Of a stretch of DNA of 52,486 nt, positions 20,936-29,128 are shown in pieces (positions within the stretch are counted from its first letter, which is position 1; the number at the start of each line of letters is the position of its first letter). The stretch is taken from the IMG/VR virus record IMGVR_UViG_3300037070_006243, positions 1 through 52,486 of that record. The stretch is one strand, 5' to 3'. The DNA comes from a virus. Below the pieces are notes generated by a model. That model had not been told where the DNA came from and did not search any database. It saw only the letters and a list, made by a program, of their open reading frames with translations. The position numbers and the translations under genes were made by a program.

Positions 20936-21316
20936 ATGCGCTTTCAGGATTTCAGCACCGCAAACCGCCGCCGCTGCGAGGCCGCAGTCGGCTTCAATCA
21001 CCCGCTCGCCAGATGGTCAACGTCCGACTGGTTCACCGCCGTCGTGGGAGAACTCGGCGAGGCTGCCAACATCGCGAAGAAGCTGAACCGTGTGCGCGAC
21101 GGCATCCCCGGCAACGATCAGACGCCAGACGAGTTGCGGGCCGCCCTCGCCGACGAGATCGCCGACACGTTCATCTATCTGGACTTGCTGGCGCAGTCGG
21201 AAGGCATCGACCTCGCGGCTGCGATTGTCGCGAAGTTCGACCGCACGTCGGCGAAGATCGGCTATCCCATGGCCCTCACCCCGCCTGCCACGGAGACGCC
21301 GGATGCCCAGCGGTAA
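20936..21316 (+). CDS. MazG-like nucleotide pyrophosphohydrolase
   Basis: This is a 126-residue MazG-fold enzyme. The metal-binding set is E39 and E42 in VVGELGEAAN and E74 and D77 in ADEIADTFIYLDLLA, matching ExxE...ExxD. Such proteins hydrolyse NTPs or dNTPs to NMPs and can alter (p)ppGpp or modified nucleotide pools during infection. The gene overlaps the ParB-methyltransferase by 14 nt. Confidence 0.85.
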   Translation: MRFQDFSTANRRRCEAAVGFNHPLARWSTSDWFTAVVGELGEAANIAKKLNRVRDGIPGNDQTPDELRAALADEIADTFIYLDLLAQSEGIDLAAAIVAKFDRTSAKIGYPMALTPPATETPDAQR

Positions 21317-22523
21317 ATTCACATCCTACCCCATCGACTCAATAACCATCCTCCGCGACGACCGACAGCGACGTGACCTCGAAGACGTCTCCGACCTAAC
21401 CACCTCCATCACCCGCATCGGCCTCGTAAACCCGATCGTAATCACCCCGGAGGGTGTACTCGTCGCCGGAGAGCGCCGTCTGACCGCCTGCCGCCTGCTC
21501 GGTTGGACCGCCATCCCAGCGCAGTACACCACCGACCTCGACGAGATCGAGCTCGAACTGATCGAACTCGAAGAGAACCTCCGCCGGAAAGACATATCCT
21601 GGCAGGAACAATGCACCGCGATCCGCCGTATGCACGATCGCCTCATTCAAAAGAACGGCAATGACTGGACGCAGGCACAAACAGCCGAGTACCTCGGACA
21701 TACAGAAGCATTGGTTCAACGCTACCTCTTCGTTGAAAAAGAGCTTTCCGCGGGAAACACTCTTGTCGCCTCTGCTTCTGGGATCGTCACGGCAACGAAT
21801 ATGGTCCGGCGAAAAGAAAGCCGCGCCGTTGCGGAGCTTATCCGAAATATTAACCCACCGCAACATGAAGGCCCGCCTATACTCAACCTCGACTTTTATC
21901 AATGGCTGGAGTCATATGAAGGACGGCCGTTTAATTTTCTACACTGTGACCCTCCGTATGGAATAAAGATGCAATCAGCGGCTGGGATGAATAAAGCTAA
22001 CCGGGAGCGGTACGCGGACAACCCCGAGGACTTCTTCAACTTCGTCCGCGCCATCCCGCGCATCCCGATTGAAGACTCCTGCCATATGATGCTTTGGTTT
22101 TCCATGACGTTCTATCCGTGGACGAAATTGGAGCTACATAACCAGGGGTGGATTGTGTCGCCGTTTCCACTCGTCTGGGGCAAGTCAGACAACCTCGGCA
22201 TAATGCCCGACCCCGACCATGAAGGGAGACGTAACTATGAAACCGCGTTCCTCTGTACTAAAGGTCAGCGTAAACTTGCGCAACCAGTCTCTAACATTTT
22301 CTGGGGAGCGCGTGGAGATGATCTTCACCCTTCCGTCAAACCTCGAGATATGCTTCGACATTTCCTCCGAATGTTTGTCGATTCTACAACCTCAATGCTC
22401 GACCCCACATGCGGATCGGGTAATGCTGTCCGAGTCAGCAAAGATATGGGTGCTTCCTTAGTCCTCGGACTTGAGCGCGATCCCGTCTTCCACCGCGACG
22501 CCGTGACATATTGGAGTGAATGA
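21303..22523 (+). CDS. ParB-domain/DNA methyltransferase fusion
   Basis: This is a 406-residue two-domain protein. Residues 1-115 are a ParB/Srx-type domain with LTTSITRIGLVNPIVIT and the GERRLTA signature (56-62), then an HTH-like stretch (TQAQTAEYLGHTEALVQRY). Residues about 195-406 are an amino-methyltransferase: DPPY at 216-219, TEH/HPSVKP-type loop (DDLHPSVKPRDML), and DPTCGSG at 367-373, i.e. motif IV before the SAM-binding motif I (beta-type order, N4-cytosine or N6-adenine). There is no paired endonuclease. It probably modifies phage DNA against host restriction or regulates by methylation. ATG at 21303. Confidence 0.9.
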   Translation: MPSGKFTSYPIDSITILRDDRQRRDLEDVSDLTTSITRIGLVNPIVITPEGVLVAGERRLTACRLLGWTAIPAQYTTDLDEIELELIELEENLRRKDISWQEQCTAIRRMHDRLIQKNGNDWTQAQTAEYLGHTEALVQRYLFVEKELSAGNTLVASASGIVTATNMVRRKESRAVAELIRNINPPQHEGPPILNLDFYQWLESYEGRPFNFLHCDPPYGIKMQSAAGMNKANRERYADNPEDFFNFVRAIPRIPIEDSCHMMLWFSMTFYPWTKLELHNQGWIVSPFPLVWGKSDNLGIMPDPDHEGRRNYETAFLCTKGQRKLAQPVSNIFWGARGDDLHPSVKPRDMLRHFLRMFVDSTTSMLDPTCGSGNAVRVSKDMGASLVLGLERDPVFHRDAVTYWSE

Positions 22524-22681: not shown

Positions 22682-23064
22682 AGAAACTTCTAATACTACT
22701 TCTCGCTTCCACTCCCGCCACCGCTCACGAAGCGCCGAAGGGGTGGCTTTACGAGGGTTCATGCTGTGCCGGCGACGACTGCCAACAGGTCGATTCCTCC
22801 GTAATGCACATTGTCCCCGGCGGTATCGCCCTCGTTATGAAAGCCGGAGACCACAAAAAGCTCGAGTCTGATATAACCTTCGACGCCACCCGTGTTCTTA
22901 AGCGGAGTAAGGATGAGTTCCTCCACGTGTGTTTGATTAAAATGGCCACCCCCAAACAGTGGCAGCCAACTCCCGACCAAGATCGAGACTACGTTTACAT
23001 GAAAGCGGCGGATGGTAGTTGGTACCGCCTCCTCTGCGTCTACATCCCGAAGGAGAATGGTTAA
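22678..23064 (+). CDS. Secreted Cys-rich protein, unknown
   Basis: This is a 128-residue protein with a signal peptide (MKKLLILLLASTPATAHE). The mature part begins APKGWLYEGSCCAGDDCQQV and has further Cys (HVCLIK, LLCVYIP), a likely disulfide-bonded periplasmic protein. The pattern matches small exported proteins widespread in alphaproteobacteria and their phages. The biochemical role is unknown. It overlaps the RTX gene by one base. Confidence 0.7.
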   Translation: MKKLLILLLASTPATAHEAPKGWLYEGSCCAGDDCQQVDSSVMHIVPGGIALVMKAGDHKKLESDITFDATRVLKRSKDEFLHVCLIKMATPKQWQPTPDQDRDYVYMKAADGSWYRLLCVYIPKENG

Positions 23065-23795
23065 TGGCTCTCGCTGCAAAAATTTGGAACGGTAACAGTC
23101 TTGCCAACATCATCTTCGGCACGCGCCACACGGGCAGCTACGAGGTGCTCGACGGCAAGGGAGGGAACGACCAGCTATACGGCGGCGGCGGTCCTGACTT
23201 CATCCTCGGCGGCACCGGGAACGATGTGCTCGACGGAGGTAACAATTTCGGAACCTCCACCACATTCCCCGGCAACACCTACATCCCCAACGTCGGCCGA
23301 GGGTTTAACGACACATATGCAGATCGCCTCTACGGTGGTCCCGGCAACGATGTTCTTCACGGCGGGCCGAGGAGTTACATGAACGGCGATGGCGTAGCCG
23401 ATGGTAATCCGCCTTTACAGATAGATCGAGGTGACGACTTTTTTGTCTTCCACGACGCCGGAGGGCAGGATTGGTTAAAACTTGGCGCCGGATATTCCCA
23501 CGTTTCGCAATTTGATTGGAGTGCAAAGCATCGGGATAAGATTAAAATGGTTGGCGGTGAAGATGCCTACGACGTGGTAAAAGTTTCAGCGCACCTAACT
23601 TCACAAGACAAAGACGGCAAAGGTGGTGTTTATCACCTAGATGATTTCTGGATAAGAGGAGATCACGGCGAGCGCGTGCGAATAACTCCAGAAAACAATG
23701 GGCACGGAACGGATGTTTATTTCCACAACAACAGTGGGACAACAGCCGAGGCGTTGACGGATATACAAACATTGACTGATCCTTGGTTTATATGA
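23064..23795 (+). CDS. RTX-type calcium-binding protein
   Basis: This is a 243-residue protein. Nonapeptide repeats are visible at about 28-62 (LDGKGGNDQLYGGGGPDFIL, then GGTGNDVLDGG) and about 87-105 (RLYGGPGNDVLHGG), the GGxGxDxLx pattern that binds calcium in parallel beta-rolls. The following DDFFVFHDAGGQDWLKLG and KHRDKIKMVGG segments match the end cap seen in secreted RTX proteins. There is no signal peptide and no catalytic domain, so this is a stand-alone beta-roll. It may be a virion decoration, an adhesion module or a cargo gene. ATG at 23064. Confidence 0.85.
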   Translation: MALAAKIWNGNSLANIIFGTRHTGSYEVLDGKGGNDQLYGGGGPDFILGGTGNDVLDGGNNFGTSTTFPGNTYIPNVGRGFNDTYADRLYGGPGNDVLHGGPRSYMNGDGVADGNPPLQIDRGDDFFVFHDAGGQDWLKLGAGYSHVSQFDWSAKHRDKIKMVGGEDAYDVVKVSAHLTSQDKDGKGGVYHLDDFWIRGDHGERVRITPENNGHGTDVYFHNNSGTTAEALTDIQTLTDPWFI

Positions 23796-24312: not shown

Positions 24313-24444
24313 ATGGCTAAAAAACCACTCGGCCCGCTCGCAAGATATGCATTCGGATACTCCGACAAGAAACCGGGATGGATGTATTGGGCAATCCATA
24401 TCGGAATGATAATCTTCCTTCTATACCGGTGCGTGCATGTATAG
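24313..24444 (+). CDS. Small membrane protein
   Basis: This 43-residue protein (MAKKPLGPLARYAFGYSDKK) has a basic N-terminus and one transmembrane helix (WMYWAIHIGMIIFLLYRC). The start is immediately behind element C, and it has no clear Shine-Dalgarno. It overlaps the UDG-exonuclease gene by 8 nt. Function unknown. Confidence 0.55.
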   Translation: MAKKPLGPLARYAFGYSDKKPGWMYWAIHIGMIIFLLYRCVHV

Positions 24445-25522
24445 ACCCATCCTCCTCGTCGGGGAAGCCTACGGCGAGGAAGAGGACCGGCGGAAAACCG
24501 CATTCGTCGGACCGTCCGGCCGTTTCTTAAACTGGCTTCTTTCCGACGCCGGGATCGAGGGCGGGCGGTACATGGAGGACAACCGTGGAAAATACATCGA
24601 CTGGTCCGCTTCCCACGAGGTCTACCCTACCAACTGTTTCAACCTCCGCCCCCGACCGACTAATAATATCTCTAATCTCTGCGGACCACGGAGCGAAGGA
24701 ATCGTGGGTCTACCGGCGCTGGAACCGGGACTTTACCTCCGGCGAGAATATCAGGTGGAGCTTGACCGGCTCTGGGCCGAAATCGAGCGCATTGACCCCA
24801 ACATCATTATCGCGTTGGGAAACACCGCACTACTCATCCTTACGGGTTCGAAGCTCCCCATCACAAAAAACCGTGGAAGTCTCACCACTACTTCCCGCGC
24901 GCGTGCGGATGGCACTCCGTGGAAGGTACTTCCGACCTTCCACCCGGCAAACGTTATTCGCGAGCGCAGCCAGCGTCCCATCGTAATCGCAGATTTGATG
25001 AAGGCGAAACGCCATGCCGCTATCCCCAAATTCACTCGTCCCTCTCGCAATATCTGGGTTGAACCGACACTTGAAGACCTTACTCGATTCGAACTCCTAC
25101 ACATACGCGATTTCGAAGAACCCTGCGCAGTCGATATCGAAACCGCTCGGGGGACAATCACCGAGATCGGTTTCGCTCCAAGTCGAGATGAGGCCCTTGT
25201 GGTCCCCTTCTACTCTCGAACCCACAAGGATGGTAATTACTGGCGTACTTCAGGAGAAGAGAGAACTGCGTGGCTTTGGGTCGCTCGTATACTCCGAAAT
25301 CTACGAAAACCGATTTTCCACAACGGTCTCTATGACATCTACTACCTATGGCGAGCAATGCAGCTGCCGGTCCCATTTGGTGGAGAGGATACGATGCTTC
25401 TTCACCACTCTCTTCAGCCGGAAATGAAGAAGGCGCTGGGGTTCTTGGCCACGATCTACACCGAGGAACCAAGCTGGAAGTTCATGCGGAAAGAAGTAGA
25501 CACAACGAAGACGGAGGATTGA
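24437..25522 (+). CDS. Uracil-DNA glycosylase fused to 3'-5' exonuclease front half
   Basis: This is a 361-residue protein with two domains. Residues 1-195 match family 4/5-like uracil-DNA glycosylases: motif 1 GEAYGEEED (9-17) with FVGPSGRFL, the ALGNTAL strand, and motif 2 TFHPANVIR (167-175). Residues about 225-361 are the front of a DnaQ-type proofreading exonuclease as in family A polymerases: Exo I D233-x-E235 (AVDIETARG) and Exo II N296...D300 (FHNGLYDIYYL), D318. The Exo III Tyr-Asp is missing and is found at the start of the polymerase gene at 26400. The two parts are separated by the kinase and DUF1937 genes. The protein likely removes uracil and proofreads at the fork. Confidence 0.85.
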   Translation: MYRPILLVGEAYGEEEDRRKTAFVGPSGRFLNWLLSDAGIEGGRYMEDNRGKYIDWSASHEVYPTNCFNLRPRPTNNISNLCGPRSEGIVGLPALEPGLYLRREYQVELDRLWAEIERIDPNIIIALGNTALLILTGSKLPITKNRGSLTTTSRARADGTPWKVLPTFHPANVIRERSQRPIVIADLMKAKRHAAIPKFTRPSRNIWVEPTLEDLTRFELLHIRDFEEPCAVDIETARGTITEIGFAPSRDEALVVPFYSRTHKDGNYWRTSGEERTAWLWVARILRNLRKPIFHNGLYDIYYLWRAMQLPVPFGGEDTMLLHHSLQPEMKKALGFLATIYTEEPSWKFMRKEVDTTKTED

Positions 25523-26071
25523 ATGATTATCGGAATCGCCGGGACCAAGGGCTCGGGGAAGGATACTATCGCGCTGCAATTGAAGAAGGAATATGAGTTC
25601 CACCATATCAAGTTCGCGGAACCGCTTAAGGAAATGCTTCGGGTTATCTTACAATATCGCGGAGCAAGTTTGCTCATGATCGACGCCATGCTAGAAGGGG
25701 ATCGGAAGGAGGTTCCGTCCGAATACTTCAGCGGACGTACTCCCCGCCACGCCATGCAAACCCTTGGAACTGAGTGGGGGAGGAACTGCATCGCCTCTGA
25801 TCTTTGGACTTCCATCGCCGCCGAGCGCACAGCGGCATTTGCAAAATTTGCAAACGTCGTGATCTCCGACATAAGGTTTCCGAATGAGGTGGAATGTGTG
25901 CATAAGCTCGGCGGAGAGGTTTGGCGGGTCATCCGCGATATGTCTCACCCCGCGGATCAGCATCCTTCGGAGATTCAGGTCGCAGGTCTTCACTGTGACT
26001 ACACTATCTACAACCTCGGCACGCTCGAACAACTCTATACAAAGATCACCAACCTTATGGTAAAGCCATGA
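25523..26071 (+). CDS. Deoxynucleoside monophosphate kinase
   Basis: This is a 182-residue kinase of the T4 gp1-type dNMP kinase family. The P-loop GTKGSGKDT is at 6-14, with the lid/base-binding pattern FAEPLKEML and RTPRHAMQTLGTEWGR, then VVISDIRFPNE (substrate-binding D and R). It phosphorylates dNMPs for DNA synthesis. It starts directly after the UDG-exonuclease stop and overlaps DUF1937 by ATGA. Together they interrupt the polymerase gene pair. Confidence 0.85.
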   Translation: MIIGIAGTKGSGKDTIALQLKKEYEFHHIKFAEPLKEMLRVILQYRGASLLMIDAMLEGDRKEVPSEYFSGRTPRHAMQTLGTEWGRNCIASDLWTSIAAERTAAFAKFANVVISDIRFPNEVECVHKLGGEVWRVIRDMSHPADQHPSEIQVAGLHCDYTIYNLGTLEQLYTKITNLMVKP

Positions 26072-26406
26072 TCTACCTCGCATCCCCCTACTCCAACCCC
26101 GATTTGGCAAAGATGCAACTCCGTTACGAGGTCGTTCGCGATCTAACCGCGAAACTTCTCAAGCGAGAGATATGGGTCTATTCCCCAATCGTACATTGCC
26201 ACGACCTTGCCGAACATAACGAAATGCCGAAGTCGTCCGAGTTCTGGTACAACTACAATGTGCATATGATGAGCCTCGCCGAACAGCTTTGGGTTCTTTA
26301 CATGGAGGGCACGGAAGAATCCAAAGGCATCGCCGGTGAAATCGCATGGTGGGAGGCTAACCGGTCTAAAGATACCCTCTCCTTCATCGTCGCCGACGCA
26401 TGGTAA
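26068..26406 (+). CDS. DUF1937-like protein
   Basis: This is a 112-residue protein opening with MIYLASPYSNPD, characteristic of DUF1937, a Rossmann-like family related to nucleoside 2-deoxyribosyltransferases. The conserved PIVHCHDLAE and SLAEQLWVLYMEGTEESKGI segments are present. A nucleotide-metabolism or base-exchange role is plausible from this relation and from its location between the dNMP kinase and polymerase genes. Stop and next ATG overlap (ATGGTAA). Confidence 0.8.
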   Translation: MIYLASPYSNPDLAKMQLRYEVVRDLTAKLLKREIWVYSPIVHCHDLAEHNEMPKSSEFWYNYNVHMMSLAEQLWVLYMEGTEESKGIAGEIAWWEANRSKDTLSFIVADAW

Positions 26407-27950
26407 GGGTAATCTCCACCGAAGACCTCCAACCCGGCCGGGCGATGGAGTCGTCCGACCTAACTTCATGGGTGTACAACGGGCTGGATTGCTGCGTTAC
26501 GCTGGAGATATACGATAGCTTAATCCCCCTCCTCGATCCACAAACAGTCGCCACCTACGAACTGGAAAAGGAACTCCAAGGCCCCGTCCTCGACATGAAT
26601 ATGTCCGGTATGCTCGTCGACAAACAAGAGTTGATGGAAGCTATCGGCTACATGACGGGACTTATTAACACCTACGAGCGGAACCTGAACCGCCTCTTCA
26701 CCGAAGGGTATGGGTTTGAAATAAACTGGCGCTCTCCGCAGCAACTCCAAACCTTCCTCTACGACTTCCTAAAACTCCCCCCGATTCGCAAGCGCAACGC
26801 CAAGGGCGGGTATTCCCGCACTGCCGACCGCGACGCGCTTGAGCGTCTTTCGATCTACCCCATCGTCTCCCCCGTCTGCGAGCATATGTTCGCGTTGCGA
26901 GATATGGCGAAGAAACTCGGCTTCCTTCAAACGGACATAGACACCGATGGATACATCCGCTCTTCCTATAACATCGCAGGTACAACCACGGGACGGCTGG
27001 CATCCGCGGAGTCCGCATTCGAAACCGGAAGCAATCTCCAAAATGTTGACCGACTACTGCGTCGTATCCTCATCGCTCCGGCGGGAAAGAAAATCTGTAC
27101 CATTGACTTGGAACAGGCAGACTCCCGTAATGTGGGGGCAATGTGTTGGAATAAGTTTCTCGCTGAACACGGATCCGCCTTCGCCGGGAGTTATCTGGGC
27201 GCGTGTGAGTCTGGAGACCTACATACCTCAGTTGTTCGAATGGGATGGCGAGATCTTAATTGGGGCGATGACGAACGGAACTTCCGTGCTGTTGCTGACG
27301 AAAACGCGTATCGAGATTATTCCTACCGGGACTTGGCTAAAAAGCTTGGACATGGTTCCAACTACTATGGCCAACCACCGACTATGGCAAAACACTCAAA
27401 ACTCCCTGTTGCTGTTGCAACGGATTTCCAAGCACTCTATTTTGAGGCATTTCCGTGTATTCCTCTCGGACATAAATGGGTTGAACGCGAGCTTAAGGCT
27501 GGTCGTCCTTTGGACACCCTTTTCGGACGGCGCCGCCGATTTTTTGGCGACCCAAACGACGATAAGACGCTTCGAGATGCGATCGCGTTCGTTGGACAAG
27601 GAAGCACCGCCGACGAAGCCAACCGCGGACTTCTTATGGTATGGAGGCAATGCAAAAGATTCCCCGGATTTCAGCTGATTGCGCAGGACCACGACTCGGT
27701 TTCCTTCTACTACGATGAAGAGACGGAGGATGAAATCGTTCCCTTCGCGTTGAAGTGTATGGAGGTTCATACCTACCTAGCCGGGGATCGGCCATTCTAC
27801 GTCCCCGGCGAGGCCAAGGTTGGATGGAACCGCGGAGACTACAGTGACTCCCCCGGAAAAAGACTAAACCTAGATGGAATGAAAAAATGGAAGAACGGGG
27901 ACTCGCGCAAGCGACAAGTCGGGCCGCGAGCAGCGTACAGCCTGAGGTAA
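26400..27950 (+). CDS. Family A DNA polymerase, polymerase half
   Basis: This is a 516-residue protein. It starts with the Exo III remnant YNGLDCCVTLEIY (26-38), i.e. the tail of an exonuclease domain. It then shows palm and fingers motifs: motif A DLEQADSR (236-243), motif B R310...K314 and HGSNYYG (318-324), and motif C HDS (431-433). The canonical acidic residues D236 and D432 are kept. The E of DYSQIELR is D here. A family A polymerase of about 500 residues without Exo I/II matches a split polymerase. It overlaps the next gene by 64 nt in another frame. ATG at 26400. Confidence 0.9.
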   Translation: MVRVISTEDLQPGRAMESSDLTSWVYNGLDCCVTLEIYDSLIPLLDPQTVATYELEKELQGPVLDMNMSGMLVDKQELMEAIGYMTGLINTYERNLNRLFTEGYGFEINWRSPQQLQTFLYDFLKLPPIRKRNAKGGYSRTADRDALERLSIYPIVSPVCEHMFALRDMAKKLGFLQTDIDTDGYIRSSYNIAGTTTGRLASAESAFETGSNLQNVDRLLRRILIAPAGKKICTIDLEQADSRNVGAMCWNKFLAEHGSAFAGSYLGACESGDLHTSVVRMGWRDLNWGDDERNFRAVADENAYRDYSYRDLAKKLGHGSNYYGQPPTMAKHSKLPVAVATDFQALYFEAFPCIPLGHKWVERELKAGRPLDTLFGRRRRFFGDPNDDKTLRDAIAFVGQGSTADEANRGLLMVWRQCKRFPGFQLIAQDHDSVSFYYDEETEDEIVPFALKCMEVHTYLAGDRPFYVPGEAKVGWNRGDYSDSPGKRLNLDGMKKWKNGDSRKRQVGPRAAYSLR

Positions 27951-29128
27951 GGGTGACAGACTGGCTAACCGCTTTCGCCGGGTTAACGCAGAGCTTGAAG
28001 ACACCGGACCTTTTTAAAAGATGGTCCGGTGTTTTCACGTTAGGCGCGGCTATGCAAAGGCGGGTATGGCTCCTATCCGATTCACGAGAGGTATTCCCCA
28101 ACCTATATGTATTCCTCTGCGCCCCGCCGGCGACTGGTAAGGGAGTTGCACTCGATCCGTGTACGGACCTTCTTACATCCCTCGAAGATCACTTCGTTGG
28201 TACTCGAAGCATGACCGCGGCGGCGCTCGCGGATGAGATAAACGAAGCAACGGTGTCCATCTTTGTGAACGGCGAGGGTGTGCAGTTCAACCCTCTTACA
28301 ATTATATCCGACGAGCTTGGCGTTTTTCTCCCCGTCTACGACGCGATTATGATGTCGCGCCTTACCGATGTTTACGACTGTAAGGGGTACTCCGAACGCA
28401 CCCGAGGCGGGGATCGCATCACCGTAGACAAAGCTCACCTATCCCTGATCGCCGGTTGCACTCCGGCACGACTCCAAAACATGCTCCCCGACGGTGCCTG
28501 GAACGAGGGTTTCATGTCCCGCGTAATCTTAGTCTACGGAAGCTTTGATGAAAACCGAATGATTTCTGAAGAACGATCTAACTACTCTCCGGGTATGTTC
28601 AACGTTCTTCGGGATGAATTAATATCCCGCACCTCACGCTATGGCCGGGTGCGATGGTCCGCCGAAGGCTTAGAGGCCGCGAATGTGTGGATGCGAGCCA
28701 AAATGGCACCGCGCCCACAGCATCCAAAACTCGTCTTCTACAACGGACGACGACATTGGAACTTTATGAAGCTAGTTCTAATCTTCTGCATATCCAGAAA
28801 CGGAGACCTCGTAAACGCAGATGATGTACTGAATGCGCAGGACCTACTATTGGAAACCGAGACGTACATGTCCGATGCGTTCAAAGCGATGCGTTCGGGC
28901 GGGGATCAAGAGGTCATGGAAGAACTCTACCACTGGCTATACACGCTCGGGGTCAAAGATAACCAACCCCGAGCACGTATGTATCTTGTCCGATTCCTCG
29001 CCGAACGCGTCCCTGCTCATGCTATTGAGAGGATCATCCTCGCCATGCTTGGAGGAGGAATGATAACAGAGGAACAGGTGAAGAATATCGGCCCGTGCTA
29101 CCGCGCAGCAAAGTTGGATATAGAATGA
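27887..29128 (+). CDS. DUF3987-like AAA ATPase, candidate replicative helicase
   Basis: This is a 413-residue protein. It has a Walker A-like PPATGKG near residues 80-86, a Walker B-like LTIISDELG near 143-151, and a following sensor-like region (LSLIAGCTPARLQNML). This is the pattern of DUF3987/primase-helicase C-terminal ATPases. The N-terminal 40 residues are low-complexity. No primase catalytic domain is visible. It ends the rightward unit at TGA 29128, abutting the leftward 29129 gene. The likely role is fork unwinding or loading of polymerase. Confidence 0.7.
   Translation: MEERGLAQATSRAASSVQPEVRVTDWLTAFAGLTQSLKTPDLFKRWSGVFTLGAAMQRRVWLLSDSREVFPNLYVFLCAPPATGKGVALDPCTDLLTSLEDHFVGTRSMTAAALADEINEATVSIFVNGEGVQFNPLTIISDELGVFLPVYDAIMMSRLTDVYDCKGYSERTRGGDRITVDKAHLSLIAGCTPARLQNMLPDGAWNEGFMSRVILVYGSFDENRMISEERSNYSPGMFNVLRDELISRTSRYGRVRWSAEGLEAANVWMRAKMAPRPQHPKLVFYNGRRHWNFMKLVLIFCISRNGDLVNADDVLNAQDLLLETETYMSDAFKAMRSGGDQEVMEELYHWLYTLGVKDNQPRARMYLVRFLAERVPAHAIERIILAMLGGGMITEEQVKNIGPCYRAAKLDIE

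What the first reader, a model, noticed from the sequence alone, without database searches (positions are those of the whole stretch)
24437..27950. DNA polymerase split inside its proofreading exonuclease, front half fused to a uracil-DNA glycosylase
Seen: Exo I (D233/E235) and Exo II (N296/D300) lie at the C-terminus of the 361-residue UDG-type protein, while the matching Exo III motif YNGLD plus the polymerase palm motifs lie in the separate 516-residue protein that starts at 26400. Between them sit a dNMP kinase and a DUF1937 gene, all overlapping by a few bases. The proofreading active site would have to be rebuilt from two chains. Inferred: a replisome with built-in uracil sensing, assembled by translational coupling of four genes, or a recent insertion in progress.
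Basis: partly seen in the sequence, partly recalled or inferred. Interest (0 to 1): 0.8.

Follow-up and report, generated by a model that had tools for sequence, protein, structure and literature searches.

The report
Two-chain phage polymerase with split proofreader
A large group of mostly uncultured viruses of bacteria makes its DNA-copying enzyme as two separate proteins, cut inside the error-correcting part, and that part's catalytic residues have stayed unchanged on both pieces in 133 genomes, which means the two pieces almost certainly join into one working enzyme.

Summary
The window (a 52,486-base IMG/VR phage record) encodes a family-A DNA polymerase in two chains. Chain 1 (24437-25522) is a type-4-like UDG domain plus Exo I/Exo II. 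Chain 2 (26400-27950) is Exo III plus the polymerase. A dNMP kinase and a DUF1937 gene lie between them.

It is neither an assembly error nor a recent insertion. The same split, at the same loop, occurs in 133 loci (73 non-redundant at 70% identity), including the isolated Caulobacter phage Kuura. On a tree it has one origin (SH-aLRT 100), and no re-fused member was found. The genes between the halves vary: from none (TAATG/ATGA overlap), through DUF1937, HNH or MazG, to 5 kb.

Exo residues on both chains are invariant, while the UDG residues on chain 1 have decayed in about a third of the lineage. AlphaFold2 of a natural read-through fusion gives a complete Klenow-like enzyme (pLDDT 95, pTM 0.92) that is disordered only at the junction.

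Best reading: an obligate two-subunit proofreading polymerase. Split phage polymerases (T4-like gp43A/B, MEP401) and one-piece UDG-exo-pol enzymes (SPO1, PaBG, phiLo) are known. A fixed split through the proofreading site was not found described. New variant of a known kind.

The parts
24437..25522 (+). Chain 1: UDG domain + N-terminal part of the 3'-5' exonuclease domain (361 aa)
   Evidence: ORF; Pfam UDG; phrog_17; alignment; AF2 model pLDDT 91.7
24449..24973 (+). UDG domain (residues 5-179), family-4/UdgX-like; E10, N66, H169 present in the window
   Evidence: PF03167 E 5e-16; Foldseek to T. maritima 1l9g/1vk2 TMt 0.7; residues
25130..25141 (+). Exo I motif (V-D233-I-E235)
   Evidence: D and E in 129/129 aligned split loci
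25322..25336 (+). Exo II motif (N296...D300)
   Evidence: N 131/131, D 133/133
25481..25519 (+). New C-terminal tail of chain 1 after invariant W347-K348 (FMRKEVDTTKTED), consensus TxK[KR][DE][DE]-stop in relatives
   Evidence: disordered in models; may also carry a ribosome-binding site
25523..26071 (+). dNMP kinase gene lying between the halves (cargo, found in the gap only in the window)
   Evidence: PF21448 / phrog_139; absent from the other gaps
26068..26406 (+). DUF1937 gene (nucleoside deoxyribosyltransferase-like); commonest gene in this gap
   Evidence: PF09152; 56 of 133 gaps
26400..27950 (+). Chain 2: Exo III segment + polymerase thumb/fingers/palm (516 aa)
   Evidence: PF00476 E 3e-27
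26400..26468 (+). New N-terminal head of chain 2 (MVRVIST...), consensus M[KR][IV]IxT, predicted strand in a relative
26475..26489 (+). Exo III motif Y26-NGL-D30
   Evidence: Y 132/133, D 133/133
27105..27107 (+). Polymerase motif A aspartate D236 (steric-gate position is D241, in place of the usual E)
   Evidence: D236 133/133; 241 D 89, E 44
27327..27353 (+). Polymerase motif B (R310...K314...H318)
   Evidence: 133/133 each
27690..27695 (+). Polymerase motif C H431-D432
   Evidence: 132/132
27887..29128 (+). DUF3987/phrog_14296 primase-like gene that follows the polymerase in nearly all relatives

Best explanation
This is an obligate two-subunit family-A DNA polymerase. Chain 1 (UDG + Exo I/Exo II) and chain 2 (Exo III + thumb/fingers/palm) are made from one operon and associate without a covalent bond through the exonuclease domain. 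The break lies in the loop between Exo II and Exo III, so the proofreading site is completed in trans and the UDG domain sits on the non-polymerising subunit. The split arose once in an ancestor with a one-piece UDG-exo-pol enzyme and became fixed. The junction then served as a slot in which cargo genes (here a dNMP kinase and DUF1937) come and go. Shown: the split, its age, its fixed position, invariant catalytic residues on both chains, and a confident composite fold. Inferred: physical association, proofreading activity, and the function of the UDG domain.
For: Same split position in 133 loci, including the isolate Kuura. One origin with SH-aLRT 100 in 72 sequences, and no one-piece member inside the clade. 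Exo residues of both chains invariant in all 133 split loci, apart from one substitution at the Exo III tyrosine, at mean 48% pol identity among 73 non-redundant loci. Internal control: UDG residues on the same chain 1 have changed in about a third. The 17-aa low-confidence stretch in the AF2 model of natural read-through fusion L085 is exactly the junction; pLDDT 95, pTM 0.92; Klenow match TMt 0.78. Chain 1 alone loses confidence from residue 321 on. Exo-half divergence follows chain 2 (r 0.755) more than its own UDG domain (r 0.536). Precedent: split gp43A/gp43B of Aeromonas phage 25 co-purify and polymerise, and the split NrdA of phage Aeh1 is active (PMC2988022).
Against: No biochemical evidence. 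The fold was run on a covalently joined relative, not on two free chains of the window, so docking of free chains was not tested. Distance correlations partly reflect shared ancestry, and the covariation signal is weak (Neff about 71). The conserved tail of chain 1 can be explained by an embedded ribosome-binding site rather than an interface.
Confidence: 0.85

Rival explanations
1. The two halves are joined after all: an intron, split intein or programmed read-through restores one polypeptide, and the genes between are intron/intein passengers.
For: SPO1 gp31 has an intron in the same family of polymerase. Three relatives have the halves in one frame separated by a single stop codon (L013, L085, L143). 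HNH endonucleases sit in some gaps.
Against: No Rfam intron family in the window or in 32 other loci. The chain-1 tail is only 8-19 aa, too short for an intein, and is disordered. Each chain has its own conserved terminus, start codon and often a ribosome-binding-like site. Adjacent pairs overlap out of frame (TAATG/ATGA). Gap content is unrelated between genomes and reaches 5 kb.
Confidence: 0.05
2. Chain 1 acts as a free uracil-DNA glycosylase and chain 2 as an exonuclease-less polymerase; the exo remnants on both are not a working nuclease.
For: Chain 1 has an intact UDG-type site in the window. Other family-A polymerases lack proofreading (general knowledge).
Against: Exo I/II/III residues are invariant on both chains, whereas the UDG residues decay. 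The short Exo III segment at the start of chain 2 has no other known use and is as conserved as the polymerase core (entropy 1.10 vs 1.12).
Confidence: 0.06
3. Sequencing or assembly error, or a recent, still decaying insertion in this one genome.
For: The record is metagenomic; the dNMP kinase is in the gap only here.
Against: 133 loci with the same split, including the Kuura isolate whose assembly was checked by restriction digest (PMC9959647); one old origin.
Confidence: 0.01

Closest known systems
One-piece UDG-exo-pol family-A polymerases: Bacillus phage SPO1 gp31, Pseudomonas phage PaBG gp205 (PMC7412058), phiLo polymerase PDB 9qhs, Microcystis phage Mel-JY34
   Same: Same domain order UDG - 3'-5' exo - polymerase; homology to chain 1 and chain 2 shown here for Mel-JY34 and other one-piece relatives, to chain 1 for SPO1 and phiLo
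   Different: One polypeptide. Here the chain is broken between Exo II and Exo III, with genes inserted in most members, throughout the clade
Caulobacter phage Kuura (OQ067476) Kuura_029 + Kuura_026
   Same: Same split at the same loop; basal member of the clade
   Different: 36% identical; two other small genes in the gap; its UDG motif is degenerate. Chain 1 is annotated 'hypothetical protein', and the passages of the paper read here do not mention the split
Split family-B polymerase gp43A/gp43B of Aeromonas phages 25/44RR (PMC2988022)
   Same: Replicative phage polymerase in two chains that reassemble; linked to mobile elements
   Different: Different polymerase family, split site and accessory domain
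Palm-split family-A polymerases: OM43 phages MEP401/402 (PMC10580990), Vibrio phage VS-ABTNL-3, and 11 loci found here
   Same: Family-A polymerase in two ORFs, often with a small gene between; some belong to the sister clade
   Different: Split lies in the polymerase domain after NLQNIP, is sporadic and arose several times; here it is in the exo domain, arose once and is fixed

Membership tests
DNA polymerase family A | Pfam DNA_pol_A match with motifs A, B and C | tested here: met
   PF00476 E 3e-27; D236, R310, K314, H431, D432 conserved; H318 stands in place of the usual F of motif B and is invariant in the clade
One-piece UDG-exo-pol polymerase (SPO1/PaBG type) | UDG, complete 3'-5' exo domain (Exo I, II, III) and polymerase in one polypeptide | tested here: not met
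   Exo I/II on chain 1, Exo III and polymerase on chain 2; this is the variation described
Family-4/UdgX-like uracil-DNA glycosylase | UDG superfamily fold with motif 1 GExPGxxE and motif HPx | tested here: met
   GEAYGEEE and HPA in the window, with Y in place of the motif-1 P; PF03167; Foldseek to 1l9g/1vk2/1ui0 E about 1e-10 to 1e-9
Family-4/UdgX-like uracil-DNA glycosylase | 4Fe-4S cluster with an N-terminal cysteine pair | tested here: not met
   Window chain 1 begins directly at motif 1 with no N-terminal CxxC; number of Cys in the UDG part varies from 0 to 6 in the clade
Family-4/UdgX-like uracil-DNA glycosylase | Uracil excision activity | not testable with these tools
   Needs an enzyme assay; E10/N66/H169 present in the window but not throughout the lineage
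Split polymerase (two-chain enzyme that reassembles, as gp43A/B) | Two genes that together cover one polymerase, with both parts of the active site conserved | tested here: met
Split polymerase (two-chain enzyme that reassembles, as gp43A/B) | Physical association of the chains | tested here: inconclusive
   Confident composite fold for a fused relative; free chains could not be modelled together

The most novel reading that the evidence does not exclude
The split is adaptive rather than merely tolerated. Proofreading and UDG act as a detachable subunit whose loading and release switch the polymerase between proofreading and non-proofreading forms, or couple uracil recognition to proofreading. 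Loss of the UDG residues in part of the lineage would then mark a switch from glycosylase to a docking or DNA-binding module.
Probability: 0.15. Interest if true: 0.82.

Novelty: new variant of a known kind. Interest (0 to 1): 0.62.

Why it matters
It is a natural example of one catalytic site that must be built from two polypeptides, kept for a long time across a broad phage lineage, with the break in the proofreading domain of a replicative polymerase. It gives a ready comparative set (adjacent, cargo-separated and distant halves; one-piece sister clade; independent palm splits) for asking how essential genes become split and whether detachable proofreading changes mutation rate. It also means that annotation pipelines will miss the proofreading half: in Kuura chain 1 is called a hypothetical protein.

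Tried and rejected
Intron explanation: Rfam scans of the window and of 32 other loci gave nothing. Interface role of the chain-1 tail: the KR/KK codons are mostly AAGAGG/AAGAAG and a start codon follows closely in 67 of 73 loci, so a ribosome-binding site explains it as well. Inter-chain covariation: enrichment of exo-exo pairs about 4-fold in the top 25, but Neff is about 71 and contacts could not be checked because no coordinates are returned, so only weak support. First mixed alignment A7 was misaligned and not used. Phage MW202554 (ctLwi270) looked split at the same place, but its break is after Exo III and looks like a frameshift. Search of bacterial genomes for hosts found no relative. 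Single-sequence searches of IMG/VR found little, and a profile was needed. Papers on the phiLo structure (9qhs) were not found in the library. Promoter and terminator scan of the region gave no more than chance.
Full report
OBSERVATION. Chain 1 (24437-25522, 361 aa) carries UDG PF03167; chain 2 (26400-27950, 516 aa) carries DNA_pol_A; the genes between are a dNMP kinase and DUF1937. Both chains match PHROG phrog_17 (DNA polymerase) at adjacent profile ranges, 552-788 and 809-1246. Exo I and Exo II are on chain 1, Exo III on chain 2. Chain 1 and the dNMP kinase abut; the other two junctions overlap by 4 and 7 bp. The record is an IMG/VR virus contig of 52,486 bases. Head-tail adaptor, internal virion protein, major head and tail proteins, a Dda/UvrD-like helicase, a PD-(D/E)XK exonuclease and a primase-like gene mark it as a tailed phage, probably podovirus-like.

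HOW WIDESPREAD. Caulobacter phage Kuura, an isolate, has chain 1 (Kuura_029) and chain 2 (Kuura_026) broken at the same loop but with two unrelated small ORFs between. Profiles built from the window, Kuura and one-piece relatives found large numbers of relatives in IMG/VR. Script analysis gave 133 loci (window and Kuura included) with both halves in separate ORFs and none fused. Distances between halves run from -4 to +5080 bp. Fourteen pairs abut or overlap within 4 bp, mostly as TAATG/ATGA. Three relatives have both halves in one frame separated by a single stop.

AGE AND ORIGIN. 73 loci are non-redundant at 70% identity (mean pairwise identity of chain 2, 48%). On a tree of 144 polymerase sequences the exo-split forms are one clade (SH-aLRT 100, 72 rows, one change), with Kuura at its base and a mostly one-piece clade (Mel-JY34-like) as sister. 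That sister clade has separate, sporadic splits in the palm loop after NLQNIP in 11 loci, with at least three origins, the same part of the protein as reported for OM43 phages MEP401/402 (PMC10580990) and seen in Vibrio phage VS-ABTNL-3. L216 is broken just after Exo III. So this polymerase family tolerates being split at several loops, but only the Exo II/Exo III split became fixed in a clade.

GENES IN THE GAP. 193 ORFs were called in 133 gaps: DUF1937 in 56 genomes, KTSC-domain protein in 16, HNH_3 endonuclease family in 9, MazG-like and others, 68 singletons, and no ORF in 21 genomes. ORFs here were called mechanically, so some singletons are not genes. The dNMP kinase is in the gap only in the window; L060 has a homologue upstream of chain 1. 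The gap is therefore a cargo slot, and the four genes are not one conserved assembly. HNH genes in the slot fit, but do not prove, a homing-endonuclease origin of the split as discussed for T4-like phages (PMC2988022).

SELECTION ON THE DIVIDED SITE. Across the 133 loci D233 and E235 (129/129 aligned), N296 (131/131), D300 (133/133), Y26 (132/133) and D30 (133/133) are essentially invariant, as are polymerase motifs A, B and C. The UDG triad equivalent to E10/N66/H169 is complete in only 45 of about 68 non-redundant loci that could be scored. Both domains are on chain 1, so this is an internal control: the exonuclease is under stricter constraint than the glycosylase. Divergence of the exo half follows chain 2 (r 0.755) more closely than the UDG domain on its own chain (r 0.536).

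NEW TERMINI. After the invariant W347-K348 chain 1 ends within 8-19 residues, usually with TxK[KR][DE][DE]; chain 2 starts 18-27 residues before Exo III with M[KR][IV]IxT. The head is predicted as a strand in L085. The tail is disordered and its codons resemble a ribosome-binding site (63 of 73 loci; start codon close to the stop in 67 of 73), so coupled translation is a sufficient explanation for it.

STRUCTURE. Two free chains could not be modelled together. Instead the natural relative L085, whose halves lie in one frame separated by a TGA, was read through and folded with an alignment of 122 sequences: pLDDT 95.0, pTM 0.92, with only residues 326-342 under 50, which is the end of chain 1 plus the linker. 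It matches Klenow-type polymerases (8oo6 TMt 0.78; phage G20c 7r0k). Window chain 1 alone (65 sequences) gives pLDDT 91.7, but confidence falls from residue 321 to the end, a region that is confident in the fused model. It matches family-4 UDGs and UdgX, and the one-piece UDG polymerase of phiLo, 9qhs. In phage G20c polymerase an extra motif (S-beta-alpha-R) is inserted towards the end of the exo domain, in the region of Klenow Phe473 between Exo II and Exo III (PMC9629493), which agrees with a tolerant loop.

MECHANISM. Most likely the operon yields the two chains by coupled translation. They assemble through the exo domain into a Klenow-like enzyme with a UDG appendage, proofreading is completed in trans, and polymerisation resides wholly in chain 2. 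Association and activity are inferred. Phage precedents for reassembly of split enzymes are gp43A/B and the split NrdA of Aeh1 (PMC2988022).

KNOWN OR NEW. UDG-exo-pol fusions are known (SPO1; PaBG, PMC7412058; phiLo), and split phage polymerases are known. Ten full-text searches found no description of a fixed split through the proofreading site, and the passages of the Kuura paper read here do not mention it. Most subscription papers were not searchable, so priority is not certain.

Noticed in passing
L192, L194, L198, L200, L202, L204, L205, L206, L207, L209, L220 (sister clade); L003: Recurrent independent split of the polymerase inside the palm domain, right after NLQNIP, sometimes with a homing-endonuclease-like or Lon-like ORF between the pieces.
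   Followed up: partly
L013:7000, L085:2712, L143:884: Both polymerase halves lie in the same frame separated by a single stop codon (TAA, TGA, TAG respectively); possible read-through or a step towards re-fusion.
   Followed up: partly
UDG domain of the lineage (window 24449-24973): The UDG residues E10/N66/H169 have decayed in about a third of non-redundant members while the domain is kept, which suggests a non-catalytic role in those phages.
   Followed up: partly
window 26068-26406 and 55 related gaps: DUF1937 (nucleoside deoxyribosyltransferase-like) is strongly associated with this polymerase gap; its role in phage nucleotide metabolism is unknown.
   Followed up: no
window 21090-22523: ParB-like N-terminal domain fused to an N6/N4 DNA methyltransferase, upstream of the polymerase; genes annotated as ParB-like or DNA methyltransferase precede the polymerase in several relatives.
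   Followed up: no
window 23019-23795: RTX-type calcium-binding repeat protein (HemolysinCabind PF00353) encoded just upstream of the replication genes.
   Followed up: no
L080:1920-7001: Halves are about 5 kb apart with two long ORFs (697 and 785 aa, tail-fibre-like by eye) between; could be a real rearrangement or an assembly join.
   Followed up: no
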